Source: Marinicauda salina
Lineage (GTDB): Bacteria; Pseudomonadota; Alphaproteobacteria; Caulobacterales; Maricaulaceae
Reading direction: 5' to 3'
Assembly: GCF_003122085.1 (NCBI RefSeq)
Contig: NZ_QEXV01000003.1
Location: forward strand, 248,001 to 312,000
DNA: 64,000 nucleotides
Shown: positions 1,421 to 40,895 of the stretch, one piece after another
Layout: the number at the start of each line of letters is the position of its first letter
Numbering within the stretch: position 1 is the stretch's first letter
The notes under the pieces: generated by a model
What the model was told of the DNA's origin: nothing
Databases searched by the model: none
What the model saw: the letters and a program-made list of their open reading frames with translations, nothing else
Program-made: the position numbers and the translations under genes

Positions 1421-1486
1421 TGCGCGCGCTGCGGCGCGCCGCCGTTCATGTTATGTTCGAGTGTTGATTCCCGAAGGATCGAGCGC

Positions 1487-2854: not shown

Positions 2855-2881
2855 CGCACGCCGGGTCGTCGGGAGGGGGAC

Positions 2882-5642: not shown

Positions 5643-5721
5643 AGCCCGCCTCCATTCCATCGCAGTTGTCGCCTCGAGCCTCCCTCAGTAAGGTCACGTG
5701 GAGGGTTAACGGGGGGATTGG

Positions 5722-6663
5722 ATGACTGCAGAGGCTGCGCCCACGGCGCCTGCCGCGCCCAACGCGTTCGAACGCGCGCTGGGAGCGCTCTTCATTCCCA
5801 CCATGCTGTCGTCGGTCATCGCGTTCGTCGCGCTGCTGGACGAGCACTTCAATCTCGCGATCCGGCTTTCGATCCTGGTGAAGCTCCTGACCGACGCCTA
5901 CGCGTGGGTCAGAAGCTGGCTGTTCGACCTCTTGCCGTTCGTGGTGCCGCCGCTCGTCCAGGATGCGCTGGTGATCGGCTCGCTGGTGTTCGTCGCGCTC
6001 AATCTCGAAAGCCTGCGCAGAACGCGTCGGCCTTGGGTGATCAGCCTCGTGCGGCACGCGATCACCTTCGCGCGCGACAAGAACGACGCCGAGAAGCGTT
6101 ACTTCCAGAACCTGTACATTTACGCGATCGTGCCGGTAATTTCTTTTGTCATTGCATGCATTTATATCGCGACATCGGTGTCCGGCTCCATCGACATTCC
6201 GTTCCTGAACCGGCTGGAGGCCGACTCCCTCCTGTATCAGTCCGCCATCGCCGGCGGTTTATTCGTCGCGAGCGCCAGCATACTCATCGCGATCTTCTTC
6301 TCGATGGCGTTCCTGCTCGAGGATGTGAACTGCGTCGTCGACCCCAAGACCAAAGAAAAGGCGTGCGACGACCGGATCGACACGATCGATCCGCTGCCGC
6401 TTCGGATCATTTTCTACATCTATCTCGTGGTGGTGGCGCTGGGCGTCGTCGCGGCGGCCTTCATGACGGTGCTGATCTCGAGCATCATCACGTCCCTCTT
6501 CCGCTCGTGGCGATCGATCGGGCTGCTGGCGGGCGGTCTCTGCGCCCTGATCGGCCTGAACTTCCTGTTCCTGAACTATCTCGACCCGATCCTGCTGGAT
6601 CCGCCGCCCGCGCTTCGGGACCTGATCAACGCCGATCTCTCGCGGCTCGTCGAAGACCGCTAG
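5722..6663 (+). CDS. Unknown polytopic membrane protein
   Basis: Not recognised. 313 residues with about six hydrophobic segments: roughly 20-40, 70-95, 132-155, 173-200, 228-260 and 268-290. A charged cytosolic-looking stretch around residues 95-125 (SLRRTRRPWV then ARDKNDAEKRYFQ) and a loop with two cysteines (DVNCVVDPKTKEKACDD) separate them. No transporter or enzyme motif is visible. It stands alone on + with its own leader after the purF run. Its stop overlaps the stop of the convergent der gene by 4 bases (CTAG). Confidence 0.75.
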   Translation: MTAEAAPTAPAAPNAFERALGALFIPTMLSSVIAFVALLDEHFNLAIRLSILVKLLTDAYAWVRSWLFDLLPFVVPPLVQDALVIGSLVFVALNLESLRRTRRPWVISLVRHAITFARDKNDAEKRYFQNLYIYAIVPVISFVIACIYIATSVSGSIDIPFLNRLEADSLLYQSAIAGGLFVASASILIAIFFSMAFLLEDVNCVVDPKTKEKACDDRIDTIDPLPLRIIFYIYLVVVALGVVAAAFMTVLISSIITSLFRSWRSIGLLAGGLCALIGLNFLFLNYLDPILLDPPPALRDLINADLSRLVEDR

Positions 6664-8045: not shown

Positions 8046-8068
8046 GGCTTCAAGTCCTCTCCGCGCCT

Positions 8069-9472
8069 TCAGCGCAGCGCGATCAGACGCGCTTCGTCGG
8101 TCAGAAAATAGACCGTCTCACCGGCGATGATGGGCGCGATATAGACATTGTCGCCGAGATCGCGCGACCCGATCCGCTCGCCGGTCGCGGGATCGAGCAT
8201 CATCATCGTGCCGCGCGAGTTCGCCAGCACGAGCCGCCCGCCGGCGAGAATCGGCCCGGCCCAGGCGATGCGGTGCTTCCGACGGTCCGCGTCGCGGAAC
8301 GACGCCAGCTCGGTGATCCACCGCACCGCGCCGGTGTCGCGCTCCATGGCGACGACTTCGGCCTCGGTGGTGACGAAGAACAGGAAATCCCCGGCGACCC
8401 AGGGCGCATGCAGGCCGCCCGCCGGCTGGGACCAGATGCGCTCGCCGGTCCGGATGTCGAAGCCCGCCATCTGGCCGGAATGGCTCATGGCGAAGACCTG
8501 ATCGTCGATGATCACCGGGCTCGCGGCGATGTCGTTGATCGTCGACATCGGGGTGAGGCCGCCCGCCCGCGTCAGCGAATCCGACCACAGCACGGTTCCG
8601 TTCTGCACGCGCAGGGCCACGATCTCGCCCGACGAGTACGGCGCGATCACCACTTCGCCGCGAACGGCGGGGCTCGCCGCGGTCAGCAGGCGCGCGGTTT
8701 CGGCGATGCCGCGATGGGTCCAGAGCACCTCGCCCCCGTCCGCGTCGAGCGCGAGCAGTTCATTGTCGTTGGTGCTCACGAAGACCCGGCCCTCCACCGC
8801 AGTGGGCGCCGAATGGAACGGCGTGAGCGCGCTCTGGCGCCACAGCTCCTCGCCGGTTTCGGCGTCGAGCGCGTAGAGCGTTTCGCCGCCCGCGTGGGCG
8901 ATCAGGCGCCCGGCGTCGACGGCGAGTCCCCCGCCGAAGGTGAGGATGCGTTCGCCGCTGCCGATGAACGGGACCCATCCGCCGCCCTCGCGGTCCTCGC
9001 CGGTGATCAGCCGCCGGTTCCAGAGCTCCTCGCCGGTTTCGGCGTCGCGCGCGGTGACGCGCCCCGCCCCGTCGATGGCGTAAATGACGCCCTCGGCCAG
9101 AACCGGCCGCGCGGTGAGGCGGTGGTCGCGGCCCGAACCCGCGCCGATCCGCTGCCGCCAGAGCACGTCGAGATCGCCGGAGGCCTGGGTGTGCTGCATG
9201 GCGTGCGTGGCGTAGCCGTCAGGCTGCGGCCAGCGGTCGTTGACGTAGGCGCGCGGCACCGCGACCGGCGCGCCGAAGGACTCGCCCCGGTTCAGGCGCT
9301 CCTCGAACTCCATGATGGAGATGCGCTCGGACTCGGCCGGCGCGTTCGGGTCGTCCGTCTCCGGGCCGCCGAACGGATTGAGGTCCCGGATGCGCTCGCC
9401 CGCTCCGCAGCCGGCGAGGACCAGCGCCGACGCCGCAAGAAGCGCCAGCGCGATGCGATGGGCCAGTGTCAC
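8069..9472 (-). CDS. bamB: BamB-like outer-membrane assembly lipoprotein (PQQ beta-propeller)
   Basis: Probable lipoprotein of the BAM outer-membrane protein assembly complex. The N-terminus is a signal peptide with lipobox LAGC (Cys about 21). The rest is a run of beta-propeller repeats with the recurring pattern DAETGEELW, A-DGGEVLWTH, RTGERIWSQ and DTGAVRW. Length 467 is somewhat longer than enterobacterial BamB (about 390). The GTG start overlaps the YfgM-like stop as GTGA. The start assigned gives a clean signal peptide. Confidence 0.85.
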   Translation of the reverse strand: MTLAHRIALALLAASALVLAGCGAGERIRDLNPFGGPETDDPNAPAESERISIMEFEERLNRGESFGAPVAVPRAYVNDRWPQPDGYATHAMQHTQASGDLDVLWRQRIGAGSGRDHRLTARPVLAEGVIYAIDGAGRVTARDAETGEELWNRRLITGEDREGGGWVPFIGSGERILTFGGGLAVDAGRLIAHAGGETLYALDAETGEELWRQSALTPFHSAPTAVEGRVFVSTNDNELLALDADGGEVLWTHRGIAETARLLTAASPAVRGEVVIAPYSSGEIVALRVQNGTVLWSDSLTRAGGLTPMSTINDIAASPVIIDDQVFAMSHSGQMAGFDIRTGERIWSQPAGGLHAPWVAGDFLFFVTTEAEVVAMERDTGAVRWITELASFRDADRRKHRIAWAGPILAGGRLVLANSRGTMMMLDPATGERIGSRDLGDNVYIAPIIAGETVYFLTDEARLIALR

Positions 9473-10155
9473 GCGTCACTCTCCTCGTCCGCCGCCGCGG
9501 TCCCGGCCGGCGCGTTCTGCTCGATATAGGCCAGCGCCTCGCGCGCCCGTCGCGATTGATTGGGCGAGCCGTCGAGCGCGAGGCTGAGCAATTCGTAGTG
9601 ACTGCGCGCCTCTTCCCAGCGCGCCTCGCGCATGGCCGCAGCGCCGGCGAGTTCGCGCGCCAGCGGCCCGAACGCCGCATCGCCGCCCATGAGCGGTTCG
9701 AGGCGCAGCATCACGTCGTCATAGGACAGGTCGTCGAAGCCGGCGAGCACGCCGCGATACCGCGCGAGATCGCGCGTGAGCCGGTCGGGGGCGCGCTCGG
9801 CGGCCTGCTCGTAGAGCTGCGCGGCGCGGGCGGCGTCGCCCTGTTCCAGCGCGATGGCGGCGCCCTCCATGAGCGCGAGCGTGGCGTAGCCGCGCGGCCC
9901 CTCCTCGGCGAGGGTCGCGAAGGCCTCGTCGGCCGCGTCGAGCCGGCCGGCCTCGAACGCCTCCTGGCCTGCGATGAAGGCGTCGGACGCGCGCGACTGG
10001 ACCCCGCCGCGCCAGAATTCGTAACCCTGATAGCCGGCCACGCCCGCCACGATCGCGGCGGCGGCTCCGGCGACCCAGGGACCCCAGCTGCGAAGAAGCT
10101 GCTGATACCGCTCGTGGCGCAGCTCTTCCTCGACCTCGTCGAATATGTCGACCAA
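9469..10155 (-). CDS. YfgM-like membrane-anchored TPR protein
   Basis: Single-pass membrane protein with a periplasmic tetratricopeptide-like region, resembling YfgM, which in E. coli associates with the SecYEG translocon and periplasmic chaperones. The N-terminal cytosolic segment VDIFDEVEEELRHER is followed by one TM helix (about residues 25-47) and helical repeats to residue 228. TTG 10155 is chosen because it places the conserved VDIFDEV at the N-terminus, with GGAG upstream; a second TTG at 10179 would add 8 residues. First gene of the yfgM-bamB-der run. Confidence 0.85.
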   Translation of the reverse strand: MVDIFDEVEEELRHERYQQLLRSWGPWVAGAAAAIVAGVAGYQGYEFWRGGVQSRASDAFIAGQEAFEAGRLDAADEAFATLAEEGPRGYATLALMEGAAIALEQGDAARAAQLYEQAAERAPDRLTRDLARYRGVLAGFDDLSYDDVMLRLEPLMGGDAAFGPLARELAGAAAMREARWEEARSHYELLSLALDGSPNQSRRAREALAYIEQNAPAGTAAADEESDA

Positions 10156-10235
10156 TGCGGCGCTCCGCCTCTCGACCAAAGAATGCGGCGGACCCTAGCC
10201 GCGTTGGAATCGCCCCGCAATACGCGCCTGCGGCG

Positions 10236-11063
10236 TCAGGACTTTTTGGCGCCGTAGACCTGATCCGGACCGGGGAAGGCCCGCGCGCGCACATCGTCGG
10301 CGTAGGCCTTGACCGCCTGCTCGGTGAGCGACTTCAGATCGCCGTAGCGCTTGACGAAGCGCGGCGTCCAGTCGAACTGGCCGAGCATGTCGTTGGTCAC
10401 CAGGATTTGGCCGTCGCAGGCCGCCGATGCGCCGATGCCGATGGTCGGCGCGGAAACCTTTTCGGTGATCTCGGCGGCGAGGTCCTCGGCGACGCCCTCG
10501 ATGACGAGGGCGAACGCCCCGGCCTCGTCGGCGGCGACCGCCTCGTCGAGTACGCGCGCGCGCTCGTCGGCCTTGCGGCCCTTGGCCTTGAATCCGCCTT
10601 CGACGAGGGCCGCCTGCGGGCGCAATCCGACATGGCCCATCACGGGCAGGCCGCGCTCGACCAGGAAGCGGACGGTCTCGCCGATATAGACCCCGCTCTC
10701 GACCTTCACCGCCTGGGCGCCCGTCTCGCGCAGAACGCGGGCGGCGTTGTCGAAGGCCTGCTCCTTCGAGCGTTCGTAGCTGGAGAACGGCATGTCGACG
10801 ACCACCAGCGCGCGCTTCGAGCCGCGCATCACCGCCTGTCCGTGCAGGATCATCATCTCCAGCGTCACGGGAATGGTGTTGGGCAGGCCGTGAACGACCA
10901 TGCCCAGCGAGTCCCCCACCAGCAGGACGTCGCAATGCGGGTCGAGCAGGCCCGCCGTCGGCGCGTCGTAGGCGGTCAGGCAGACGAGCGGATCGCCGCC
11001 CTTGCGCGCCCGGATCTCCGGCGGAGTCAGGCGTTTGACCGGGGTTTCGGACTGAGCGGACAT
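10236..11063 (-). CDS. panB: 3-methyl-2-oxobutanoate hydroxymethyltransferase
   Basis: Ketopantoate hydroxymethyltransferase, first step of pantothenate/CoA synthesis (5,10-methylene-THF plus 3-methyl-2-oxobutanoate). The TIM-barrel family signatures are present: [14 protein letters not shown] near the start, [13 protein letters not shown] with the Mg-binding Asp, MPFSSYE, KVESG and GHVGLRPQ. Length 275 is normal. No panC is adjacent. It lies upstream of the yfgM-like gene on the same strand, about 80 bases away. Confidence 0.95.
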
Positions 11064-11138
11064 GGACGGCCTCTCCCTGCTAGGCGGGCCGACCCTAGCT
11101 GTCTTCGCGCATGCAAAAAAGCCTTGTGCGCCGCAAGG

Positions 11139-11477
11139 TCAGGCGAAGCCGCGACGCGGAAGGACCCAGGCGAAGCCGAGCGCGATCGCGGCCATCGCGA
11201 CGGTCACGATCGCCTCGGGCCCCATGAAACCCGCCAGTTCGCCCAGCAGCCCGCCCATCTGCTCGACGGGCGTGTCGAGGAGGCGCTCCAGCTGCGTGCC
11301 CGCCACGGCCGAACCGCTGGCGCCGGCGCCGCCGAGCAGCAGGAACCGCCGGCGTTCCGGCCGCGCGAGATGCGCGACGACGTCCTCGACGAACGCGGGG
11401 TCGTCCTCGGGCGGCGCGGCTTCGGCGAACATCGCCTGAAGCCGGGCGTCGAAGGGATCCTGCTCGATCTCGGTCAC
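11139..11477 (-). CDS. Small membrane protein coupled to an ECF sigma factor
   Basis: 112 residues. The N-terminal third is soluble and acidic (TEIEQDPFDARLQAMF, then DDPAFVEDVVAHL). A short hydrophobic stretch (about 50-68) is followed by a C-terminal TM helix (about 88-107) ending in basic residues. The GTG start overlaps the sigma-factor stop as GTGA, so translation is coupled. The position directly after an ECF sigma gene suggests an anti-sigma or accessory role; that is inference, as no zinc-binding anti-sigma (HxxxCxxC) motif is visible. An in-frame start upstream at 11504 lies inside the sigma gene and is less likely. Confidence 0.8.
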   Translation of the reverse strand: MTEIEQDPFDARLQAMFAEAAPPEDDPAFVEDVVAHLARPERRRFLLLGGAGASGSAVAGTQLERLLDTPVEQMGGLLGELAGFMGPEAIVTVAMAAIALGFAWVLPRRGFA

Positions 11478-12016
11478 GCCGCCTTCTCCTTCTCCTCGAA
11501 CCACGTCTTGAGCTTGTCTCGTCCGCGGTTCACATGGGACTTCACCGTGCCCAGGGGAATGCCGGTGACGTCAGCCGCCTCCGAGTGGCTCATGCCGCAC
11601 GCGTAGCACATCACCACGCACGCCCTTTCGTCTTCCTTCAGCGTCGCCAGCGCCCGGTCGAGATCGACCTTGCCGCCGGCGTCGCGGGGCGCCTCGCTGG
11701 TCTCGGCGGGCTGTTCCTGGAACCGCTCCAGCGCCCGATCGGCGGCCTTGCGCTTGCGCGCCGACTGCAGGAACTCCGTGTAGGCGATCCGGCACAGCCA
11801 CGCCTTGAAGCTTCCATCGCCCTTGAAGCCGTCGATCTTGTTGAAGGCGCGTATGAACGCGTCCTGGGCCAGATCGTCGGCGAGCGCGTGGTTTCGACAC
11901 AGACGCATCATCATCGCCCTCACGAGGGACTGGTGACGGCGCACGAGTTCGCCGAAGGCGCGCGTGTCGCGCGCCGCCACCACCAGAGCGACAAGCTCCT
12001 CGTCGCTTGCAGCCAA
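11474..12016 (-). CDS. ECF-type RNA polymerase sigma factor
   Basis: Alternative sigma factor of 180 residues. Region 2 contains DLAQDAFIRAFNKIDGF and the promoter-melting KAWLCRIAYTEF; region 4 has a helix-turn-helix (SHSEAADVTGIPLGTVKSH) near the C-terminus. The start is TTG 12016, with AGGGGGA upstream at good spacing. It is flanked by two small membrane proteins on the same strand (12047-12439 upstream, 11139-11477 downstream), a common layout for ECF regulons controlled at the membrane. Target promoters cannot be read from this window. Confidence 0.93.
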   Translation of the reverse strand: MAASDEELVALVVAARDTRAFGELVRRHQSLVRAMMMRLCRNHALADDLAQDAFIRAFNKIDGFKGDGSFKAWLCRIAYTEFLQSARKRKAADRALERFQEQPAETSEAPRDAGGKVDLDRALATLKEDERACVVMCYACGMSHSEAADVTGIPLGTVKSHVNRGRDKLKTWFEEKEKAA

Positions 12017-12046
12017 GCCGCATCCCCCTGAGCGGGCGGCTCCGAC

Positions 12047-12439
12047 CTAGTCGGATGAACCGCGCTTTTCACGGTTGAACCAACCGAACACTAGCAGAAC
12101 CACGCCGATGAAGCCCGGAAAGGCGGCGACGCCGGCCATGATCGGCATCACCTCGGAGGCCTCCTCGGGCTCCACCGCGGCGATCGAGCCGCCCAGCACG
12201 AGCAGCGCCAGGGCGATCGCGATCATGATCGCGCCCGCCTTGAGGTCGCCGCCGCCCGTCTTCTTCGGCATGCCGAGCGCGCGGATCGTTTCGGGCGTGA
12301 GCTGCTGGCCCGAGCGCGCGGCTTCGCGCACGGTCTCGAGCACGTTCTGCCGGTTCTTCGATGCGAAATGCATGCTCACCCAGACGATGGCCACAACCAT
12401 CAGAAACAGGGAGACCGGTACGACGATATCAGGACCCAT
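12047..12439 (-). CDS. Small membrane protein (DUF6249-like)
   Basis: 130 residues with an N-terminal TM helix (about 5-24), a soluble linker (NRQNVLETVREAARSGQQL, then TPETIRALG) and two further TM segments (about 68-85 and 95-118) before a basic tail. The linker pattern resembles a membrane-protein family often found beside ECF sigma genes, which I know as DUF6249; function unknown. The start ATG 12439 is the first one compatible with the N-terminal TM helix. The sigma gene starts 30 bases downstream, so co-transcription is likely. Confidence 0.8.
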   Translation of the reverse strand: MGPDIVVPVSLFLMVVAIVWVSMHFASKNRQNVLETVREAARSGQQLTPETIRALGMPKKTGGGDLKAGAIMIAIALALLVLGGSIAAVEPEEASEVMPIMAGVAAFPGFIGVVLLVFGWFNREKRGSSD

Positions 12440-12495
12440 CTTTGAGTTCCTCTCTTCGCATTGTCTGGACCAACCGTTCGGCGTCCTTGCGAATC

Positions 12496-13080
12496 CTAGA
12501 TGCCCGGGGGCGCGGTTTCGGATGCAAACCCGACCACGGCCACGCCGAACAGCTGCATGTGGAACCAGGCCAGCGCCGCCGCCGCGCCGAGGCCGAGGAC
12601 GATGGCGACGAAATCGGCGCCCCAGTTTCCGGAGTCCTCGAACTGGCCGCCGCGCGCGTAGGCCGTCACCAGCGTGAGCAGCGACCACGCGCCGAGCGCG
12701 CCGAACAGGATCAGCGAGGCGCGCTCGCCGTTCGCCAGGAAGTGGGCGACCGCCCAGAGGAAGATGCCCAGCGTCATCGGGTGCCGGATAAGGGAGCGGA
12801 TATGCGTCGGCAGATAGGCCGCCACCACAAGCACCAGAGATATCGGCACGGCGACCAGCGCGAAGGACCGCGTCCACACCGGCGGGTTCCAGACCGTGGC
12901 CGACGGGTGGGCGAGGATGTGGCCGTACACGATCAGCGCCAGCCCGACGGCGCTCACGATCGAGTAGACGATGAAGAAACCCGTCTCGCCCAGCATCCGC
13001 GCGAATGCGCCGCGCAGGCCGAGCATGCGCAGCGAATGAATTCCGATGAACACGATCAGTCCGGTGACGAGTACGCCCAA
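12496..13080 (-). CDS. NnrU family membrane protein
   Basis: Integral membrane protein of the NnrU family, first described near nitrite/nitric oxide reductase genes in Rhodobacter and later in isoprenoid and haem-related contexts; activity not settled. 194 residues, about five to six TM segments, with family motifs HSLRMLGLR near the N-terminus and SLIRHPMTLGIFLWAVAHFL in the middle, His residues included. TTG 13080 is preceded by GGGAGGGG. No denitrification gene lies nearby in this window, although an NsrR-like regulator does (51781). Confidence 0.85.
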   Translation of the reverse strand: MGVLVTGLIVFIGIHSLRMLGLRGAFARMLGETGFFIVYSIVSAVGLALIVYGHILAHPSATVWNPPVWTRSFALVAVPISLVLVVAAYLPTHIRSLIRHPMTLGIFLWAVAHFLANGERASLILFGALGAWSLLTLVTAYARGGQFEDSGNWGADFVAIVLGLGAAAALAWFHMQLFGVAVVGFASETAPPGI

Positions 13081-32064: not shown

Positions 32065-32712
32065 TCACAGCGCGACGGGGGCGAATTCGCCGTCGACGGT
32101 CAGCCATTCGAGCTCGCCGTCGGCGATGCCGAAGCGCGCGCCGTGGAGCTTGAGACGCCCGTCGGCGAGGCGTTCGGCGACGAAGGGATAGGTCTTCAGG
32201 CGCTCGATCGACCGACGGATCGAGCATAGCTCGACCCGCTCGGAGAGCGCGTCCTCATCCGTCAGCTGCGGCTCCTCGGAGCGCGCATCGGCGAGCGCTT
32301 CGCCCAGCGGTTCGATCCACTGATTGATGAAGACCGCGTCCGCGTCCTCGCCGCCGCCCGCCACGCACGCCTTCACGCCGCCGCATTGGCGATGGCCCAG
32401 CACCAGGATGTTCGGCACCTCGAGCTTCTTGACGGCGAACTCGAGCGCGGCGGACACGCCGTGATGCCCGCCGTCGGGCTCGAAGGGCGGGACGATGTTG
32501 GCGACGTTGCGCACCACAAAAAGCTCGCCGGGACGGGCGTCGAACACCTGGGCGGGATCGACCCGGCTGTCGCAGCAGGCGATCACCAGCGTATGCGGAT
32601 GCTGGCCGTCCTCCGCCAGCGTTTCGAACAGGGCGTGCTGGCGCGGGTAGAGCTCGCTTCGGAACCGCGAGAATCCCTCGGTGAGGGGCGAAGGCATGGA
32701 ACGCTTGGGCAT
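32065..32712 (-). CDS. Beta-class carbonic anhydrase
   Basis: Zinc enzyme interconverting CO2 and bicarbonate, 215 residues. The ligand motif CCDSR gives Cys46 and Asp48; the second cluster is GHRQCGG (His and Cys). VRNVANIVPPF and GVSAALEFAV are also typical. ATG 32712 is taken; GTG 32721 and ATG 32697 are in frame. It is in the same direction as hmgA and the FAH-type gene, although carbonic anhydrase has no known role in tyrosine breakdown. Confidence 0.92.
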   Translation of the reverse strand: MPKRSMPSPLTEGFSRFRSELYPRQHALFETLAEDGQHPHTLVIACCDSRVDPAQVFDARPGELFVVRNVANIVPPFEPDGGHHGVSAALEFAVKKLEVPNILVLGHRQCGGVKACVAGGGEDADAVFINQWIEPLGEALADARSEEPQLTDEDALSERVELCSIRRSIERLKTYPFVAERLADGRLKLHGARFGIADGELEWLTVDGEFAPVAL

Positions 32713-32760
32713 CGGACGCACCCTAACGCGGGCCGGCGATTCCGCCAGCCGCGCGTTCGA

Positions 32761-33909
32761 TCACTCAGCCGCTTCGCGGGCGCGCCAGGAATTGACGTAG
32801 TCGGCGTTCTCCACGCTCGCCGCGCCCTCGCCGACCTCCAGCGGATCGCGCGTGTCGATCATCACCGCGTACTCGTCGGTCGCGGGCTTGGACTGCTCCA
32901 TCATGTTCTTGAGCGCCTTGGGATGCGGCCCGTGAGTGAAGCCCGACGGGTGGAAGGTCATCATGCCCGCATCGATGTTGTCGCGGCTGAAGAAGTCGCC
33001 GGCGTGGTAGAACAGCACCTCGTCGTAATCGTCGTTGTTGTGGAAGAACGGCACCTTGAGCGCGCCGGGGTCGGTCTCGAAGGGCCGCGGCGCGAAGGTG
33101 CACACGACGAAGCGGTCCGACAGGAAGGTCGTGTGCGCGCTCGGCGGCAGGTGATAGCGGTGGCTCATCAGCGGGCGGATGTCGCGCACGTTGAGCCGCA
33201 CCGGGTGCAGCTCGCCGTGCCAGCCCACGGCGTCCAGCGGATTGAACGGATAGGTGATGCGGCTGACCTGGCCGCGCTTCTTGACCTCGACGGTCCAGTC
33301 GCGCCCGGCGTCGGCCTGCTGGGCGCGGAACGCCTCGTCCATCGCCGGCACGTCGAACACGGCCGGGTCGAAAATGGCGTGCGGGCCGACCAGCCCCTTG
33401 TCGGGCAGGGTGTAGTGCGTGTTCGTCGCCTCGACCATCAGCACCGAGGTCGCCGCGTTCGGGTCGAGCCGCCACATCGTTCCGCGCGGCAGCACGATGT
33501 AGTCGCCGGCCTCGTAGGCGAGCCGGCCGAAATCGCAGAAGAGATCGCCGGAACCTTCATGGATGAACAGCAGCTGGTCGCCGTCGCCGTTTCGCGCCAG
33601 CGCCTCCATCGCAGTGTCCAGTTTCCAGAACCGGATATCGCACGACGCGTTGTGCAGCACGGAGGCGGCGCTCCACGGCGAGGCCTCGGCGATATTGAGC
33701 TTCGCCAGGTCGAAGGCGCGCGGTTGCAGCGGGCCCTCGAACTTCACCCAGCCGGTGGGCGGGTTCCGGTGATGGAGGAAGGCGGCCGGGCCGAAGAACC
33801 CCTCCTTCGACATCTCGCGCTCATAGGGCCCCTCCTCGGGAAAGTCGGCGTGCGCCTGGCGCGAAGCCTGGCCTTCCGTGCGCGACGCGTAGATCCATTT
33901 GCGAGCCAT
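32761..33909 (-). CDS. hmgA: Homogentisate 1,2-dioxygenase family protein
   Basis: Fe(II) ring-cleavage dioxygenase of tyrosine/phenylalanine catabolism, cupin fold. Metal-ligand region: FHNNDDYDEVLFYHAGDF with Glu and His, followed by TFHPSGFTHGPHP. Length 382 is shorter than many (about 430) but within the bacterial range. ATG 33909 (MARKWIY) is preferred over an upstream ATG at 33921. An inverted repeat lies upstream (33962-33979) and may be an operator. Together with the FAH-type gene at 29952, this suggests homogentisate degradation. Confidence 0.87.
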   Translation of the reverse strand: MARKWIYASRTEGQASRQAHADFPEEGPYEREMSKEGFFGPAAFLHHRNPPTGWVKFEGPLQPRAFDLAKLNIAEASPWSAASVLHNASCDIRFWKLDTAMEALARNGDGDQLLFIHEGSGDLFCDFGRLAYEAGDYIVLPRGTMWRLDPNAATSVLMVEATNTHYTLPDKGLVGPHAIFDPAVFDVPAMDEAFRAQQADAGRDWTVEVKKRGQVSRITYPFNPLDAVGWHGELHPVRLNVRDIRPLMSHRYHLPPSAHTTFLSDRFVVCTFAPRPFETDPGALKVPFFHNNDDYDEVLFYHAGDFFSRDNIDAGMMTFHPSGFTHGPHPKALKNMMEQSKPATDEYAVMIDTRDPLEVGEGAASVENADYVNSWRAREAAE

Positions 33910-33961
33910 GCGAGCCTCCATCGCGGGCGGCGCGACGCCGCCTTCCGAACGCGGCCGAAGA

Positions 33962-33979
33962 TAGTTTCATTTGTAACTA
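33962..33979. promoter_or_regulatory. Inverted repeat upstream of hmgA
   Basis: TAGTT-N8-AACTA, an AT-rich inverted repeat in an otherwise GC-rich intergenic region, 53 bases from the hmgA start on - and 123 from the HTH gene on +. It could be an operator for a MarR- or IclR-type regulator of the homogentisate genes, or for the divergent HTH gene. Assignment is inference. Confidence 0.4.
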
Positions 33980-34101
33980 AAAGGAAGAGGCCTCGCGCGA
34001 GGCCGCCTGTGCCGAGGCGGTTTGCAGAATGCCGCATTCCGATTATGGCCGTATGCCTTCCGAAAAGTCGCGAGCCGCGACGAAAACGAAAAGGGTGGAA
34101 G

Positions 34102-34710
34102 ATGAGGGGAAACAAGGATTGGGGGTCGATGTTGCGCGCATTGCGCATGCGGACGCATTTGAAGCAGGACGCCCTCGCGGCGCATCTCGACGTCAGCCAG
34201 AGCTATATCTCGCGTCTGGAGGGGGGCTATGTCCGCCCTTCAGCGGCGCTGCAGGAGAAGATCGAACAGCTGTGCGCGGACCCGCGCAACCGCCCGATGT
34301 TCGACGACTGGCGGATGACCGTGCGCCGGGCGTTCGATTTCAGCACCATCATCAGTCGCGACGGCGACACCGTAATCGCGATCGAGTTTTCTCGCGGGTT
34401 CAAGGACCTCGGAGAGCCTTTCTCGGCCGTGGAGGCCGGAGTCGATCTCGAGGGCGCGCTCAGCCCCGACGCCGACGTTCAGTTCACGCGGTTCAACGAT
34501 TTCGGTCTGTTCGCCGGCGAGGTATCGGCGATCGACACCATCTGGCGGCAGGGGGCCGGCGAGAGGGCCATCTGCTTCCAGGCGATGAACACGGCCGTGC
34601 GCGACGACTGGCGACGCTGGCACGTCCACACCTCTCATCGGCGGATTTCGCAGTCGGACTACGACGCCCGCAGGCGCGCCGGCGAGGAGACCCTGGTCCT
34701 CGAGGAGTGA
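34102..34710 (+). CDS. XRE-type HTH regulator with conserved C-terminal domain, copy 1
   Basis: 202 residues. An N-terminal helix-turn-helix of the XRE/Cro family (MLRALRMRTHLKQDALAAHL, then DVSQSYISRLEGG) occupies residues about 8-60. The C-terminal part begins with NRPMFDDWR and ends in VRDDWRRWHVHTSHRRIS, with a PAS- or ligand-domain look (alternating strands, W-H-H-HR motif). ATG 34102 is preceded by GGGTGGAAG. A close paralogue follows at 34797. Ligand and targets unknown. Confidence 0.83.
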   Translation: MRGNKDWGSMLRALRMRTHLKQDALAAHLDVSQSYISRLEGGYVRPSAALQEKIEQLCADPRNRPMFDDWRMTVRRAFDFSTIISRDGDTVIAIEFSRGFKDLGEPFSAVEAGVDLEGALSPDADVQFTRFNDFGLFAGEVSAIDTIWRQGAGERAICFQAMNTAVRDDWRRWHVHTSHRRISQSDYDARRRAGEETLVLEE

Positions 34711-34796
34711 GCGCCGGCGCCGGCTTGCCCGGCCGCCGGATCGACCTAACTCAACCGTATTGTTCAATGTTTCCAGCAAGCAACGTCTGAGGGGAC

Positions 34797-35423
34797 ATGT
34801 CTGAAGCCAGGGACTGGGGATCCGAGCTGCGCGCCCTGCGCGTTCGCCTGAATCTGAAACAGGACGCGCTGGCGACACACCTGAACGTGAGCCAGGGCTA
34901 CGTCTCGCGGCTGGAGAACGGCCTCGCGACGCCCTCCGCGGACATGTGCGCGGCGCTGGAGCGCCTGCTCTCGGACCCCGGCAACCGCCCCGTGTTCGAC
35001 GACTGGCGCCGCTCGGTGGCGATCTCGGAAACGATCAGCTCCCTCATCCGCTTCGACGAGGGGGCGATCCGCGCCGTCGAGTTCTCCCAGGGCTTTCGCG
35101 CGTTCGGCGGGTCGTTCGACGCGGCCTATGACGGCATGCCGCTCAACGGCGCCATCGGCGAGGACGCCGACGCCCAGTTCGAGCGGCTCCTGGACCGGGG
35201 GCTGTTCACCGGCGACGCAGCGGCGGCCATCAGCGTCTGGAGCACGCTCGCGAACGGCCAGCCCGTCTTCCTGAGATCGAAAAGCGTCCCGGTCCGCGAC
35301 GACTGGGGCGCATGGCACGTCCATTCCAGCCACCGGCTGATCGACGAAGCGCAGTACTGCGCCGTCAAGGAGTCGGAGCGCGACACGGTCGTGATGCCCA
35401 ACGGCGACGAAGTCCGGTTCTGA
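34797..35423 (+). CDS. XRE-type HTH regulator with conserved C-terminal domain, copy 2
   Basis: 208 residues, paralogue of the previous gene: DWGSELRALRVRLNLKQDAL and NVSQGYVSRLENG in the HTH region are nearly the same, and the C-terminal half shares NRPVFDDWR, ADAQFERL, GLFTGDAA and VRDDWGAWHVHSSHRLI. The C-terminal half has diverged more than the HTH. The two genes are separated by 86 bases, with their own start region. The pair may regulate each other or bind related operators with different ligands; this is inference. Confidence 0.83.
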   Translation: MSEARDWGSELRALRVRLNLKQDALATHLNVSQGYVSRLENGLATPSADMCAALERLLSDPGNRPVFDDWRRSVAISETISSLIRFDEGAIRAVEFSQGFRAFGGSFDAAYDGMPLNGAIGEDADAQFERLLDRGLFTGDAAAAISVWSTLANGQPVFLRSKSVPVRDDWGAWHVHSSHRLIDEAQYCAVKESERDTVVMPNGDEVRF

Positions 35424-35427
35424 CGCC

Positions 35428-35682
35428 CTACGCCACCTGCCTGAGGAGGATATTCATCGCGATCGAGATCCGGTCGCGTTGACCATTGTGCGGCCGTACG
35501 GCGTGCATGAGCCAGGATGGGAACAGCACGAGCAGCCCCGGTTCGGGCTGAATGTGATGCTGAGAGATCGGCTGGCCGCGCGGTCGCTCCCCCATCACCA
35601 CGTCCGCCGCCCCAATCCGGTTCATGGGGAAGCGCGCGATCCCCTCTATTGAACACCGCCGATTTTCAAATGCGGAGCGCAA
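35428..35682 (-). pseudogene. 3' remnant of a 2OG-Fe(II) oxygenase-like gene
   Basis: The last 50 or so residues of this frame match the C-terminal end of a 2-oxoglutarate/Fe(II) dioxygenase family: PGLLVLFPSWLMHAVRPHNG then RDRISIAMNIL, giving the distal His and the Arg that binds 2OG. The upstream HxD that completes the iron site is absent and the frame opens in unrelated sequence (around 35650), so the gene is truncated. It borders an AT-richer segment with a WYL-TerB gene, which may have replaced its 5' part. Confidence 0.6.
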
Positions 35683-35899
35683 CAGCTAGATGGCCGCCTT
35701 CAACGCGGGCGGCGAGCGGGGACGATCAGCGGGGTGGCGAAGAGAATGCTGACATCACCTCCTACTTTGCCAGCGGCATGGATATCTGGATAAGCGCTCA
35801 CGTGCGTCTCCCCTTGCTCCGAGAATAGCGCGAGATCGCAATACCATCCCATACGACACAAGCAGCTCGCTTTTCTCATACTAGATTTTATGAGAGCAT
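35683..35899. other. Intergenic, no gene found
   Basis: Lower-GC stretch between the oxygenase remnant and the WYL-TerB gene. Short frames on both strands (35517-35828 and 35700-35912) have no recognisable domain and are not supported. No terminator or repeat is seen. Confidence 0.5.
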
Positions 35900-36763
35900 A
35901 TGCCTCTACCATTGGTGGTGTTTGACATGCTCGAATTTCGAAAACTCCTCACCCTCATCGGCGAAAAGCGTCCAGATGTCGCTGCTCCTGCAAACCTGCA
36001 AGTGGAAGTGAAGGCGCCGGACGAAGCCGAGATGGTGCCGGAGCATGCCAACGAACCGGAGCCTTCGTTCGGATTTGCCGAAGGTCAGTGTTTTGGGATT
36101 GAGTATGTAGCTTCGGATGGCGAGGAGTCGCGCCGCCGCATTACTGTCTGGGATATCAAGCTCGGGAAAAATGGCATCCCCTGCCTTCTCGCTCGTTGCC
36201 ATGAACGCAACGCTACCCGCCAATTCCGCATCGACCGAATTCAATCCATCATCGACTTGGATGGCGAAATCTTCGAACCGCCAACCGAATTCTTGATTGA
36301 GATATTTGGGATGGACCCCGTATTTGCACGTGCCGCTGAAACCGGTAGCGTGGACATGCCCGAGTTTCGAGAGCAAGCCAGAATTCAAGCTGAACGCGCT
36401 GAACGCTGGCAACAGATTCGAGACATTGTAGTCCCCGAAATGAAGATCCTCGCCGCGCTATCGCTCTCCGATGGCTATATGCAAGCCGATGAGCGCGGTG
36501 AAATAGTCGCACACTTGCTAAGCCTTATTGCGCACTTGGAACCGTCTCTTGAAGAGGAAGACCGGTTGGTCGAACTGGTCAAGCGCCAGCGCCCGTCCCC
36601 GGGAGCCGTGGACCGCGCTATCGAGCAAGTGGGCAAATATCCTCGGGAACGACTAGATGCGCTCTGGGCGACATGCGTCCGAGTCATCGAAGCGGATGGT
36701 CAAATTCTAGAGGAAGAGCTCGAATTTCTGCGCACTCTCGGAGTTCAGCCCTACACGCATTGA
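35900..36763 (+). CDS. WYL-like and TerB-like domain protein
   Basis: 287 residues. The first half contains a WYL-type beta domain (IEYVASDGEESRRRITVWDI, then PCLLARCHERNATRQFRIDR and QSIIDLDGEIFEPP), a fold that binds nucleotides or RNA ligands in regulators. The C-terminal third is helical and TerB-like (ILAALSLSDGYMQADERGEI; later CVRVIEADGQILEEELEFL), with acidic helix pairs as in metal-binding tellurite-resistance TerB. Codon use is less GC-rich than in neighbouring genes, so it is probably acquired. No HTH is seen, so it is not a classic WYL transcription factor. ATG 35900 is used; ATG 35927 is possible. Confidence 0.7.
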   Translation: MPLPLVVFDMLEFRKLLTLIGEKRPDVAAPANLQVEVKAPDEAEMVPEHANEPEPSFGFAEGQCFGIEYVASDGEESRRRITVWDIKLGKNGIPCLLARCHERNATRQFRIDRIQSIIDLDGEIFEPPTEFLIEIFGMDPVFARAAETGSVDMPEFREQARIQAERAERWQQIRDIVVPEMKILAALSLSDGYMQADERGEIVAHLLSLIAHLEPSLEEEDRLVELVKRQRPSPGAVDRAIEQVGKYPRERLDALWATCVRVIEADGQILEEELEFLRTLGVQPYTH

Positions 36764-37828
36764 CTACTCCTCGTCTCCGTAGATCGCCACGACCGGCTCG
36801 CCGCCCGCGACGAGCGCGGCGCGGTACATGCCCGGCGTGTTGAAGCTCCACACCGGCCGGTCGCGGTGCAGCATCACGATCCCGCCGTCGCCGCCCATCG
36901 CGGCGAGTTCGTCCTGGATCACGCGATCGGCGATCGCCTGGGCGTCGGCCTCGCCGTCGGCTTCGGCGCGCTCGATCGCGGTGCAGATGCGCGCGGCGAT
37001 ATTGAGCCGGATGAAGAACTCGCCCGTGCCGGTCGCCGACAGCCCGCAGGCCTGATTGGCGTAGGTGCCCGCCCCGATGATCGGGGAGTCGCCGATGCGG
37101 CCCCACTGCTTGGCGGTCGTGCCGCCGGTCGAGGTGCCCGCGACGATCTCGCCGGACTGGTCGATGGCGACCACGCCGACGGTGCCGAAGGCGTGCTCGC
37201 GCTCCATCAGGTCGAGCGCGCCTTCCCGGATCGGCTCGGGCTCCGGCGCGCCTTCCGGGCGCGGGGGAACCGGCAGGCCCTGCGCCTCGACGGCGCGCGC
37301 CATCGACGCCCAGCGCCGCTCGGTGAAGAAATAGGCCGGCTCCACGAGTTCAAGCGCCTGGTCGGCGGCGAACGTCTCCGCGCCCTCGCCCGCGAGCATC
37401 ACGTGCGGGCTCTCCTCCATCACCGCGCGCGCGAGCGAGATGGGATGGCGCACCGTCGTCACGCCCGCGGCCGCGCCGGCCTGGCGGTCCGAGCCGCGCA
37501 TGATCGAGGAGTCGAGCTCGTTGCGGCCCGCCGCGGTGAACACCGCGCCGCGGCCCGCGTTGAACTTGGGATCATCCTCGAGGCCGCGGATCACGTGCTC
37601 GACCGCGTCCAGCGCCGAACCGCCCTCGGAGAGGATTCCGGCCCCGCGGGAGAGCGCCGCGTCGAGCGCGTCCCGGTAGGCCGCCTCGGTCTCGGCGTCC
37701 ATGTCGCCGCGCTCGATCACGCCGGCGCCGCCGTGAATGACGATCGCCCAGCGCGTGTCGTCCTCGGACTGGGCGCACGCCGCGCCCGAGGCGAACACGA
37801 ACAATCCGATCACAAATGAACGCAGCAT
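36764..37828 (-). CDS. Isoaspartyl peptidase/L-asparaginase, exported
   Basis: Plant-type asparaginase (Ntn hydrolase, Asparaginase_2). A signal peptide at residues about 1-19 (ending AACAQ) implies periplasmic location. The nucleophile Thr is in HAFGTVGVVAID, where autocleavage would occur before Thr; the N-terminal part has IVIHGGAGV and FNAGRGAVF, and the C-terminal half AGTSTGGTTAKQWGR. Length 354. It hydrolyses isoaspartyl peptides or asparagine. Upstream on the same strand is the isochorismatase-fold gene, about 65 bases away. Confidence 0.9.
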   Translation of the reverse strand: MLRSFVIGLFVFASGAACAQSEDDTRWAIVIHGGAGVIERGDMDAETEAAYRDALDAALSRGAGILSEGGSALDAVEHVIRGLEDDPKFNAGRGAVFTAAGRNELDSSIMRGSDRQAGAAAGVTTVRHPISLARAVMEESPHVMLAGEGAETFAADQALELVEPAYFFTERRWASMARAVEAQGLPVPPRPEGAPEPEPIREGALDLMEREHAFGTVGVVAIDQSGEIVAGTSTGGTTAKQWGRIGDSPIIGAGTYANQACGLSATGTGEFFIRLNIAARICTAIERAEADGEADAQAIADRVIQDELAAMGGDGGIVMLHRDRPVWSFNTPGMYRAALVAGGEPVVAIYGDEE

Positions 37829-37895
37829 CCCGGTCTCCCCTGTGTTTCGAACACGCAAGGAAGCATGCGGCCGGGATGCGGACAAGCAGGCGGGT

Positions 37896-38459
37896 TCAGG
37901 CGCGCGCGGCCAGCGACGGCGTTTCGCCGAGATCCCCATTGAACTCGGCCCGGCGGACGAGACGGCCGAGCTTGCGGGCGGTCTCGATGCAAAGCAGCCG
38001 CGTGTGGTGCGCGCTCCATTCGCCGACCTCGGCGGAGCCGACCGCTTCCTCGAGCAGGCTGAGCCGGTGGCCGCGATCCTGCGCGTCGTAGAGCGTCGTC
38101 GTCAGCGACATGGGCGCGGAAAAGCCCATCATGACGACCCCGCTCTCCATGGCGCCGTCGAGCACGCTTTCCAGCTCCGGATGGGCGTAGGCCGAAACGC
38201 CGGCGCGCTTGAGCAGGACCTCGCCCGGGCGCGGCTCGCAGCCGGGAACTGCCTGGGGAAGCCCCTGCCCCGGGATCATCGGTCCGCCGCGATGAAGCTG
38301 GGTGTGCACGACGTGCCAGCCCGACCGTCGGGCATTGGCGAGGATGTCGGCGCAGACCGCCGCGATCGCCTCCCCGTCAGGATCGGCCCACGGACGATGA
38401 CGGGCGACGAACTCCATCTGGAGATCCATGCACAACAGGACGGGGATGCCGAAGACCAT
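37896..38459 (-). CDS. Isochorismatase-fold protein with Ser in the nucleophile position
   Basis: 187 residues, cysteine hydrolase (isochorismatase-like) fold. Asp12 (CMDLQ) and Lys84 (VLLKRAGVSAY) of the catalytic triad are present. The third motif, usually GxxTxxCVxxT, reads GFSAPMSLTTTLYDA, so Ser118 sits where the nucleophilic Cys should be. The protein may be inactive, work as a serine hydrolase, or bind ligand only. It is 2 bases from the GNAT gene stop on the same strand, so the two are probably co-expressed. Confidence 0.8.
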   Translation of the reverse strand: MVFGIPVLLCMDLQMEFVARHRPWADPDGEAIAAVCADILANARRSGWHVVHTQLHRGGPMIPGQGLPQAVPGCEPRPGEVLLKRAGVSAYAHPELESVLDGAMESGVVMMGFSAPMSLTTTLYDAQDRGHRLSLLEEAVGSAEVGEWSAHHTRLLCIETARKLGRLVRRAEFNGDLGETPSLAARA

Positions 38460-38461
38460 GC

Positions 38462-39136
38462 CTAGTTCGTCTCCTCCTTGATCCCCTTCCGCGCGGCGGC
38501 CGGGCTTTCCGGGACCGGCGCCGCCTTGACGCGGCGTCCCGACATGTCCGCCGCGCCGCGTTCGACGGAATGATCGAGCGGGCCGGGCTCATCCCACGCC
38601 CCCTCGGGGCGATCCAGCGTCAGAGGCTCGGTCTCCGTGGTCAACGCCTTCGGGTGAAGCGCGTAGCGCCCCTCGACCTCGATATAAACGCGATCGGAAA
38701 ACACGAACGTTCCGCGGTGCTCCCTGTGGATCAGACCATACCGCTTCCAGTACGGCAGAAGCGGCTTCTGAATCTGACCGATCAACTTACGATACCCCTT
38801 GCGACGGATGATTTCTATCGCTTCGTCCATGAGCCGGCGCGTGATCCGGCCCGAGCGGTGGCCGTCGCGCACGCAGACGCGTTCGATCTTGGCGAAATCG
38901 CAGAACCAGCGAATGCGCAGGGTCGCGACCGGCTCGCCGTCGCGCTCGGCGAGAAGGTGCGTCGCTCCGGCCAGGTCGTTGCCGTCGTATTCCTCGCCAT
39001 AGGGACAGTCCTGCTCGGCGACATAGACGAGCGCGCGCACCATGAACACCTTCTGGAGGTCGTCCATGGTCCGCGCGACGCGCAGCGTCACCGCGGAGTC
39101 GTCAGCCGGCGCCGCGCTAGGCCGCGAACCGTCCAT
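38462..39136 (-). CDS. GNAT family N-acyltransferase
   Basis: 224 residues. A GNAT core is visible: VYVAEQDCPYGEEYDGNDLA, then ATHLLAERDGEPVATLRIR, and the acyl-CoA-binding ERVCVRDGHRSGRITRRLMD with R/QxxG/A-type loop. A long, charged C-terminal tail follows. ATG 39136 is selected because AAGGAGG lies 5-6 bases upstream; the gene overlaps the 3' end of the 39117-39737 gene. The substrate (amine, amino acid or lipid) is unknown. It is probably co-transcribed with that gene, which lies downstream of CtrA-type boxes. Confidence 0.82.
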   Translation of the reverse strand: MDGSRPSAAPADDSAVTLRVARTMDDLQKVFMVRALVYVAEQDCPYGEEYDGNDLAGATHLLAERDGEPVATLRIRWFCDFAKIERVCVRDGHRSGRITRRLMDEAIEIIRRKGYRKLIGQIQKPLLPYWKRYGLIHREHRGTFVFSDRVYIEVEGRYALHPKALTTETEPLTLDRPEGAWDEPGPLDHSVERGAADMSGRRVKAAPVPESPAAARKGIKEETN

Positions 39137-39737
39137 CCGGGCCTCCTTCATGATGTTCGAGTCCATCCTCGGGGCGCTGCGGCAGCCAGCCCAGCCAGGA
39201 CGGCGGGCCCTTCGGCGAGTCGAGGGAGGCGATCACCATCCGCCCTTCCCGGCTCATCGGGCGGGCGAACAGCGGAATATGGTAGAAGGCCCTCCGCCGC
39301 GCTTCCGTGATGGCGCGCGACAGGGCGCGCTTGGCGACGTCGTCGGCCGCAGCGACGCACCAGGGATAGAGCGCCGCAGCGGGTTCGTCGGGCTCCGTCA
39401 GGTGGTCGAGGCTCGGGCTGGCGGGCGTGAAGCGGCCGTGCATCAGCGCCTCGAACCCCGCCGCGTTCAGGTAGAGAAGCGCGATGAATCCCTCCGCGGC
39501 GCCGTCCTCGCCGCGGCGGATGAAGAAGCAGCGCTCGGTCTTGCGCTCGCACGCCAGCACATCGTCGGCGTCGGCGAGCTCGTCGCCGAGCGCGCCGGTT
39601 CCGATGGCGATCGCGTCCTCGACATCGGCGCGGCTGGACGATGCGCGAAAGCCGTGCTTGAGGAAAATGTCGCGCAGAAGCTGCGTCCGGGCGGCGTCTC
39701 CGCCGGCCCGCGCGGCGCTCATATTGTCATCAGGCAT
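39117..39737 (-). CDS. Unknown protein, gene downstream of CtrA-type boxes
   Basis: 206 residues, not recognised. The middle has a run ERKTERCFFIRRGEDGAA and EGFIALLYLNAAGFEAL, the latter half ALYPWCVAAADDVAKRAL and EARRRAFYHIPLFARP. These alternating patterns could be a GNAT-like fold, given the neighbour, but no acetyl-CoA loop is clear. ATG 39737 is favoured over a start at 39776. It overlaps the GNAT gene and lies directly downstream, on -, of two TTAA-N7-TTAA boxes. Confidence 0.7.
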   Translation of the reverse strand: MPDDNMSAARAGGDAARTQLLRDIFLKHGFRASSSRADVEDAIAIGTGALGDELADADDVLACERKTERCFFIRRGEDGAAEGFIALLYLNAAGFEALMHGRFTPASPSLDHLTEPDEPAAALYPWCVAAADDVAKRALSRAITEARRRAFYHIPLFARPMSREGRMVIASLDSPKGPPSWLGWLPQRPEDGLEHHEGGPDGRFAA

Positions 39738-39778
39738 AGAAGACCCCACCCTAGGCCAAGTCGCGGTTCCACCCATGG

Positions 39779-39812
39779 TTAATAGATCGTTAAATGGTTA
39801 ATAATTCGTTAA
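39779..39812. promoter_or_regulatory. Two CtrA-type boxes (TTAA-N7-TTAA)
   Basis: TTAA-TAGATCG-TTAA at 39779-39793 and TTAA-TAATTCG-TTAA at 39798-39812, both exact matches to the alphaproteobacterial CtrA consensus, spaced 19 bases apart (start to start). They lie between the divergent unknown/GNAT operon (-) and the LysR gene (+), with more TTAA half-sites nearby. A cell-cycle or flagellar-type CtrA control of one or both is likely; binding is inferred. Confidence 0.75.
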
Positions 39813-39905
39813 TCTCGTCTTAGTTTTTTCTTAACGCATTCCTGGCGTCAGCTGCTGCAACGAACTTGGAATAACCCCTATGCTGAAATCGAAGGTTGGG
39901 TTCTG

Positions 39906-40895
39906 ATGCACGGCAAAGCGCCTCTTTTCGACTGGGACGATCTGCGCGTGTTCCACGCGCTCGTCGCCGCGGGCTCGATGAGCAAGGCGGCGCAGCGCCT
40001 GGGCGTCGGCCAGCCGACGGTCAGCCGTCGACTGGAGGCGCTGGAGACGCGAATCGGCGCCCGCCTCGTGACCCGGGGCGCTGAAGGCGTCGAGCTGACC
40101 GATGTCGGCGAGCGGATCTGGACGTTCGTCCAGACCATGCAGAGCAGCGCCTCCGACATCGAGCGCGTCGCCCACCAGGCCGACAAGGCCGACGCCGGCA
40201 AGGTGCGCATCGCCGCGCCCGACGGCATCGCGGGCTTCTGGCTGGCCCGCCACCTGGCCGGTTTCGTGGAGGCCAATCCGCGCATCAAGCTGGAGCTGAT
40301 GACCCGGGGCCAAGGCGATTCCGCCGCCGAAGACGACGCCGACATCGTTCTCCAGCTCTCGGAGACCAAGCGGATGAGCATGGTCGCCCACGAGATCGCG
40401 ACGCTGCACTACGTCCCGTTCACCTCGCGCGCCTATCTGGACACCTACGGCCCGCCCAGCGGACTGGCCGACATCCTCAACCACCGCCTGGGCGACCTGG
40501 TGAACTATCGCCGGCAGCAGTCGCACTGGCCGTCGGAGGCCTCGGCCATCAAGCAGATGATGAAGCCGTCCCTGACGACGGATTCATCGGCGGCGCTGAT
40601 CGAGGGCGTCCGCTGCGGCGCGCTGATCGCGATGCTGCCGACCTACGCCTCGGCCGTCGCCCCCGAGCTGATCCATCTCGATCTCGATCTCGAAGTGCCG
40701 ATCACGCTCTGGCTGGTCTATCACCCCGACCAGCGCCGGGTGACGCGCGTGCGCAAGACCCTCGACTGGCTCCGCGAGATCTTCGATACGTCGCGCTATC
40801 CCTGGTTCCGCAAGGACTACGTCTCGCCGAGCGATTTCGCCGAGATCGAGACCATCGTCATTCGCGGCGAACGGCCGAAGCCGCGGCTGATCTGA
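39906..40895 (+). CDS. LysR family transcriptional regulator
   Basis: 329 residues. The N-terminal winged HTH is typical (DDLRVFHALVAAGSMSKAAQ then LGVGQPTVSRRLEALE). A periplasmic-binding-like effector domain follows (about residues 95-300). It lies about 94 bases downstream of the CtrA boxes and just upstream of, and convergent with, the quinone oxidoreductase gene. Ligand and targets cannot be read from the sequence. Confidence 0.9.
   Translation: MHGKAPLFDWDDLRVFHALVAAGSMSKAAQRLGVGQPTVSRRLEALETRIGARLVTRGAEGVELTDVGERIWTFVQTMQSSASDIERVAHQADKADAGKVRIAAPDGIAGFWLARHLAGFVEANPRIKLELMTRGQGDSAAEDDADIVLQLSETKRMSMVAHEIATLHYVPFTSRAYLDTYGPPSGLADILNHRLGDLVNYRRQQSHWPSEASAIKQMMKPSLTTDSSAALIEGVRCGALIAMLPTYASAVAPELIHLDLDLEVPITLWLVYHPDQRRVTRVRKTLDWLREIFDTSRYPWFRKDYVSPSDFAEIETIVIRGERPKPRLI

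What the first reader, a model, noticed from the sequence alone, without database searches (positions are those of the whole stretch)
35428..36763. AT-richer segment with WYL-TerB gene beside a truncated oxygenase
A 2OG-Fe(II) oxygenase frame keeps only its C-terminal end (distal His and Arg), and the DNA next to it is visibly less GC-rich and encodes a WYL-like plus TerB-like protein without an HTH. The break and the base composition change suggest insertion of foreign DNA that replaced the 5' part of the oxygenase gene. WYL and TerB domains both occur in stress or phage-response genes.
Basis: partly seen in the sequence, partly recalled or inferred. Interest (0 to 1): 0.55.

Follow-up and report, generated by a model that had tools for sequence, protein, structure and literature searches.

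The report
Solitary WYL-TerB gene beside broken oxygenase
A marine bacterium has picked up a single foreign gene, of a family often found in bacterial viruses and next to anti-virus systems, beside a decaying oxygenase gene; the event is ordinary, but the family looks like an untested DNA sensor.

Summary
The window is Maricaulaceae-like. Frame 35428-35682(-) is the C-terminal end of a TIGR02466/PF13759 2OG-Fe(II) oxygenase that is intact, between the same asparaginase and HgmA-like genes, in Marinicauda. The neighbouring 287-aa gene (35900-36763) is a WYL-TerB protein without a recognised HTH (GC3 0.57 against 0.83-0.92 around it), absent from all 30 asparaginase loci tested. The oxygenase 5' part was not replaced: an N-terminal remnant survives at about 35744 and about 290 bp are missing from the middle. 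So there is an insertion between the asparaginase stop and the oxygenase start, plus an internal deletion, in unknown order. WYL-TerB fusions are known in print. Here the protein belongs to a sparse, sharply bounded family (14 of 398 order genomes). Of 19 other copies whose surroundings I read, 6 are prophage-like with an XRE gene near, 1 is beside Shango (SngABC), 1 in tandem with defence candidate PDC-S37, 5 at one conserved locus and 6 alone. It keeps arginines that bind ssDNA in PafBC. Best guess: a mobile ssDNA- or oligonucleotide-sensing adaptor of phage-host conflict; the mechanism is inferred, not shown.

The parts
35900..36763 (+). WYL-TerB gene, 287 aa: residues 1-62 low-confidence/disordered, WYL barrel ~61-118, TerB helices ~184-279
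   Evidence: Pfam, alignment A1, AlphaFold2
35745..36763 (.). AT-richer inserted segment (approximate edges); right edge abuts the asparaginase stop codon
   Evidence: GC profile; absent in relatives; no convincing flanking repeats
35428..35637 (-). C-terminal remnant of the TIGR02466-type 2OG-Fe(II) oxygenase (distal His and Arg region)
35638..35800 (-). N-terminal remnant of the same oxygenase, in another frame (motif LFATPLI starts at ~35744); about 290 bp missing between it and the C-terminal remnant
   Evidence: start near 35800 is my reading, not shown
36764..37939 (-). Asparaginase_2 gene, right flank, end looks native
   Evidence: Pfam E 8e-96; ends of relatives
32761..33921 (-). HgmA-like dioxygenase, left flank of the ancestral oxygenase
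   Evidence: PF20510; synteny
34102..35423 (+). Two XRE-type HTH paralogues standing between HgmA-like gene and oxygenase remnant; a separate feature, not part of the insert

Best explanation
The ancestor had asparaginase - oxygenase - HgmA-like, all on the minus strand. About 0.95 kb of foreign DNA carrying one WYL-TerB gene entered between the asparaginase stop and the start of the oxygenase. The oxygenase also lost about 290 bp from its middle, with a frame change, and is a pseudogene (shown by comparison; order of events unknown). The WYL-TerB protein belongs to a mobile family found in prophage-like regions and beside anti-phage systems. Most likely the WYL barrel binds single-stranded DNA or nucleotide fragments made during phage attack or DNA damage, and the TerB helices pass this on to a partner protein rather than to a promoter, since no HTH is recognised (inferred from homologues, not shown).
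For: Intact oxygenase in the same place in relatives, passing the TIGR02466 cut-off; WYL-TerB gene in 0 of 30 asparaginase loci; foreign composition; N-terminal remnant and 110 bp against 399-408 bp spacing. Family spread: full-length in 14 of 398 order genomes. 6 of 19 other copies in prophage-like regions, 2 of them in IMG/VR viral contigs; 1 beside SngABC and 1 overlapping PDC-S37. Foldseek's top hits are WYL domains of BrxR, PafBC, DriD, CapW; R79 and R110/R113 of the window protein line up with the WYL arginines of PafC and relatives, and PafB/PafC arginines of this kind bind ssDNA (PMC11804915, passages).
Against: No same-genus genome to compare. A plain protein alignment of the N-terminal remnant was not above shuffles, and the DNA alignment to G029 was not either (26 of 300 shuffles). 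The motif was chosen after it was seen. TerB is below the Pfam cut-off in the window protein. 11 of 19 other copies are at a conserved chromosomal place or alone, not with phage or defence genes. R110 is not conserved across the family. In PafC alone the arginine pair was dispensable for ssDNA binding. Foldseek E-values are all above 0.001 and the model is weak. No function was measured.
Confidence: 0.55

Rival explanations
1. One replacement event: the foreign piece was swapped in for the 5' part of the oxygenase.
For: The break and the composition change lie close together; the N-terminal remnant is short and weak by plain alignment.
Against: LFATPLI motif once in 64 kb, in the right place and orientation, with spacing that shows an internal gap; DNA alignment to G023 above all 300 shuffles.
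Confidence: 0.12
2. The WYL-TerB gene is ancestral at this place and was lost in all sampled relatives.
For: The asparaginase-HgmA interval is variable in the family.
Against: 0 of 30 loci carry it; composition is foreign; in most relatives with the oxygenase it starts right after the asparaginase stop.
Confidence: 0.05
3. The gene is foreign cargo with a general stress or metal role (Ter-like), not tied to phages or DNA.
For: TerB domain with invariant acidic pairs; 5 of 19 copies sit at one conserved chromosomal place and 6 alone.
Against: Prophage and defence neighbours in 8 of 19; WYL arginines kept.
Confidence: 0.25
4. The 84-aa oxygenase frame is a working short protein rather than a pseudogene.
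For: The frame is open over 84 codons.
Against: Profile positions before 61 of 101 are missing and the nine intact relatives have frames of 213-302 aa.
Confidence: 0.02

Closest known systems
WYL-TerB domain fusions (named in Makarova et al. 2014, PMC4012209, which cites Anantharaman et al. 2012; passages seen)
   Same: Same two domains in one protein; WYL proposed there as a ligand sensor of defence systems.
   Different: The passages seen name the fusion only; they do not describe this family, its prophage places or its Shango and PDC-S37 neighbours.
WYL transcription factors BrxR, CapW, PafBC, DriD
   Same: WYL fold and arginines that bind ssDNA in PafBC.
   Different: These carry a DNA-binding HTH (from recall and the entry titles); the window protein has none recognised and has TerB instead.
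Shango (SngA with TerB domains, SngB BrxC/D-like, SngC helicase)
   Same: One family member (L066) stands next to it and SngA also has TerB domains.
   Different: No Sng genes are near the window copy; the WYL-TerB protein is not SngA.
TIGR02466 2OG-Fe(II) oxygenases
   Same: The remnant is of this family; the intact relative passes the cut-off.
   Different: The window copy is broken.

Membership tests
WYL domain (PF13280) | Match above the curated Pfam cut-off | tested here: met
   31.8 bits against 21.8
WYL domain (PF13280) | Arginines that bind ssDNA in PafBC | tested here: met
   FRIDR of the window (R110, R113) aligns with PafC R201/R204; R79 invariant in 14 of 14; binding itself not testable here
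WYL transcription factor | DNA-binding HTH in the same protein | tested here: not met
   No HTH match; residues 1-62 unstructured in the model
TerB (PF05099) | Match above the curated Pfam cut-off | tested here: not met
   17 bits against 24.4 for the window protein; 13 of 14 family members match at E <= 0.1, best 4e-13
Shango (SngABC) | SngA, SngB and SngC together | tested here: not met
   Window neighbours are other families; only L066 has all three
TIGR02466 oxygenase | Full-length domain with the N-terminal iron ligands | tested here: not met
   Only the last part is present; ~290 bp missing
Transposon or integrative element | Terminal repeats, target duplication or own recombinase | tested here: not met
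   Only chance-like repeats; the only gene of the insert is WYL-TerB
Ter operon (TerABCDEF) | Other ter genes in the same operon | tested here: not met
   None among the flanking genes scanned, 32065-40895; the rest of the genome was not searched

The most novel reading that the evidence does not exclude
WYL-TerB proteins are a phage-borne class of ssDNA sensor without HTH: in lysogens they sense replication or damage intermediates and act through the TerB domain on a neighbouring repressor or defence machine (XRE repressor, Shango, PDC-S37), and solitary copies such as this one are leftovers of phages that the host has kept as immunity genes.
Probability: 0.22. Interest if true: 0.65.

Novelty: new member of a known kind. 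Interest (0 to 1): 0.36.

Why it matters
By itself the locus is a routine case of one foreign gene next to a decaying one. What may matter is the family: a two-domain protein with a WYL barrel that keeps ssDNA-binding arginines, but with no recognised DNA-reading domain, recurs near prophage repressors and beside anti-phage systems. The four members scanned have no NCBIfam match at the limits used. If it is an ssDNA sensor that works through protein contact, it would be a different use of WYL from the known transcription factors, and it is easy to test.

Tried and rejected
Homologues in phages, plasmids and viral contigs by the window protein alone: none. One phage hit with the L063 protein, phiKM1, covers the WYL part only; plasmids with the L066 protein: none; viral contigs with the L069 protein: none.

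Promoter- and terminator-like sites in the insert: none. Repeats at the insert edges: only short, chance-like pairs. A likeness of 5-6 bases between the asparaginase end in the window and the G029 oxygenase start was considered and dropped as too short.

Tree of 20 family members: the window protein is unplaced and its branch is long. Two lone copies (L033, L034) fall with the prophage-like copy L072 (97/97), and lone L035 with prophage-like L069 (97/97), which fits but does not prove deposit by phages.

Literature: WYL + TerB + prophage, TerB_N + BrxC, and 'TerB domain' + 'anti-phage defense' gave no papers; the library holds open-licence papers only.

Own errors: for the XRE gene at 34102-34710 I used a wrong frame, and its row is void; corrected. 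Its paralogue at 34797 was in the right frame and gave no match there.

Rows left out: of the 80 loci, 30 were tested. Of the homologues found had their surroundings read; weak or partial ones (order: G125, G145, G217, G332; class: G513, G664, G554, G763, G659 and a second place in G818) did not. At E <= 0.001 the family profile also hits 75 of 137 and 231 of 398 genomes, but those outside the full-length group are partial matches.

Full report
What is there. No same-genus species is held for the window's genome. Its asparaginase neighbour is closest to Maricaulaceae bacterium EIL42A08, Oceanicaulis, Marinicauda and Woodsholea. Genes around the finding, by Pfam: carbonic anhydrase 32065-32721(-); HgmA-like 32761-33921(-) (81 bits against an equivalog cut-off of 511, so not a proven HgmA); two XRE-type HTH genes 34102-34710(+) and 34797-35423(+); the oxygenase frame 35428-35682(-); the WYL-TerB gene 35900-36763(+); Asparaginase_2 36764-37939(-); then isochorismatase-like, GNAT and LysR genes.

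The oxygenase. The frame matches only the last 41 of 101 positions of PF13759 and positions 162-198 of 201 of TIGR02466. Nine same-family genomes read here hold intact stop-to-stop frames of 213-302 aa, whose similarity to the window frame starts at its residue 16-17. In Marinicauda pacifica (L082; taken as G029 because the contig length of 1,340,107 bases and the oxygenase agree) the gene passes the TIGR02466 cut-off (77.1 against 62.5) and sits between asparaginase and the HgmA-like gene, its frame beginning within about ten bases of the asparaginase stop. Of 30 asparaginase loci tested (of 80 returned), 10 have the oxygenase, 0 the WYL-TerB gene and 0 the XRE gene at 34797. The closest by asparaginase identity (L078-L081, L114) lack the oxygenase and have beside the asparaginase a short membrane-protein-like frame of 133-143 aa (by eye; no Pfam match in the one scanned, L078).

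The 5' part. Upstream of the C-terminal remnant the minus strand reads SILFATPLI at ~35744, in another frame. All nine intact relatives carry a motif of this kind near the N-terminus, 399-408 bp before the conserved RFP; here the distance is 110 bp. The tight motif occurs once in the six frames of the 64-kb window and once in 847 kb of other loci, or 0.0013 per stretch of this length. DNA alignment of the stretch to the G023 oxygenase scored 35 (0 of 300 shuffles reach it); against G029 it scored 25, which 26 of 300 shuffles reach. A plain protein alignment was not above shuffles. The motif was picked after it was seen, so I weigh position, orientation and spacing more than the count. The reading is an internal deletion of about 290 bp, not replacement of the 5' end.

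The insert. The WYL-TerB gene has GC3 0.573 against 0.83-0.92 for neighbours read in frame, and the lowest-GC 864-bp stretch of the window begins at 35719. Its stop codon abuts the asparaginase stop; the asparaginase end looks native by comparison. The insert is about 0.95 kb. I found no convincing terminal repeats and no promoter- or terminator-like site. The gene is single-copy in the genome.

The family. A profile of 14 members (A1) finds full-length members in 5 of 137 family genomes (E <= 4e-61) and 14 of 398 order genomes (E <= 6e-64), with a gap to 2e-11 for the next match. Of the 14, 13 match TerB and 12 match WYL. Invariant residues include R79, D191/E198 and D266/E273. The AlphaFold2 model from three sequences (mean pLDDT 64.6) has very low confidence over residues 1-62, five strands at 64-118 and helices from 128 on. 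Foldseek's best hits are WYL domains of BrxR, PafBC, DriD and CapW, none with E below 0.001. By sequence the closest solved chains are an AAA ATPase (8bnv), PafBC, PafC and a WYL protein, and for TerB 2h5n and 2ou3.

Surroundings of 19 other copies. Prophage-like, with an XRE gene near and another phage-type gene: L063, L214, L069, L070, L072, L073 (6 of 19). An integrase was found near four of them (L063, L069, L072, L073); L214 and L070 have ParB-like genes, and L070 also a methylase. In L063 and L214 the XRE gene (76% alike) is convergent with WYL-TerB. In L069 and L070 the XRE gene lies directly upstream. IMG/VR holds the L063 and L070 copies, 100% identical, in contigs it lists as viral (39.4 and 95.7 kb). 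Defence neighbours: L066 stands divergently from SngA-SngB-SngC (Shango), and L077 overlaps by 4 bp a gene matching PDC-S37 (1825 bits) (2 of 19). Conserved place between an mnmA-like and an ELM1-like gene (names by eye, from recall): L064, L065, L067, L068, L074 (5 of 19). Alone between ordinary-looking genes, judged by eye: L033, L034, L035, L071, L075, L076 (6 of 19). No test of enrichment was made. In 11 of 20 copies (window included) the gene is at least 3 GC points below its locus; the five at the conserved place are not among them.

Mechanism. Shown: architecture, no recognised HTH, kept arginines, sporadic spread. From papers, passages only: WYL+TerB fusions and the sensor idea (PMC4012209); ssDNA bound by the PafBC WYL domains, lost when PafB R211/R214 are changed but not with PafC R201/R204 alone (PMC11804915); conserved WYL arginines described as important for ssDNA binding in a Pif1 helicase (PMC9964779). 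The FRIDR arginines of the window protein align to PafC R201/R204. Inferred: the protein senses ssDNA or oligonucleotides and acts through protein contact.

Verdict. Observation confirmed; interpretation partly supported; an ordinary gene gain beside a pseudogene, with a family worth a bench test.

Noticed in passing
window 34102-34710 and 34797-35423: Two paralogous XRE-type HTH genes (46% alike) of a family found in 49 of 136 same-family genomes, up to 8 matches per genome and in places in close clusters, for example G107:C30:140321-144245. Not found at the oxygenase locus of relatives.
   Followed up: partly
interval between asparaginase and HgmA-like genes; L078-L083, L114 and window 33922-36763: The interval is variable in Maricaulaceae: oxygenase, a 133-143 aa membrane-like protein, a LysR gene (L083) or, in L079, 4 kb with several frames.
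   Followed up: partly
L066 (G107) 6188-13001: A WYL-TerB gene stands divergently from a Shango system (SngA, SngB, SngC by PADLOC); a possible accessory or regulator of Shango.
   Followed up: partly
L077 (G198) 1097-9304: A DUF4011 helicase-nuclease matching PDC-S37 overlaps a WYL-TerB gene by 4 bp and is followed by an SMC/AAA_23-like ATPase gene.
   Followed up: partly
L070 (G266) 7545-7922: A frame of almost pure Asp-Gly-Tyr-Gly repeats lies just downstream of the prophage WYL-TerB gene.
   Followed up: no
window 32761-33921: The HgmA-like gene scores far below the HgmA equivalog cut-off (81 against 511 bits), so its substrate is open.
   Followed up: no
L158, phage phiKM1 record positions 7431-7796: A short WYL-only gene, annotated YafY, sits beside an XRE gene in a Komagataeibacter phage.
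   Followed up: no
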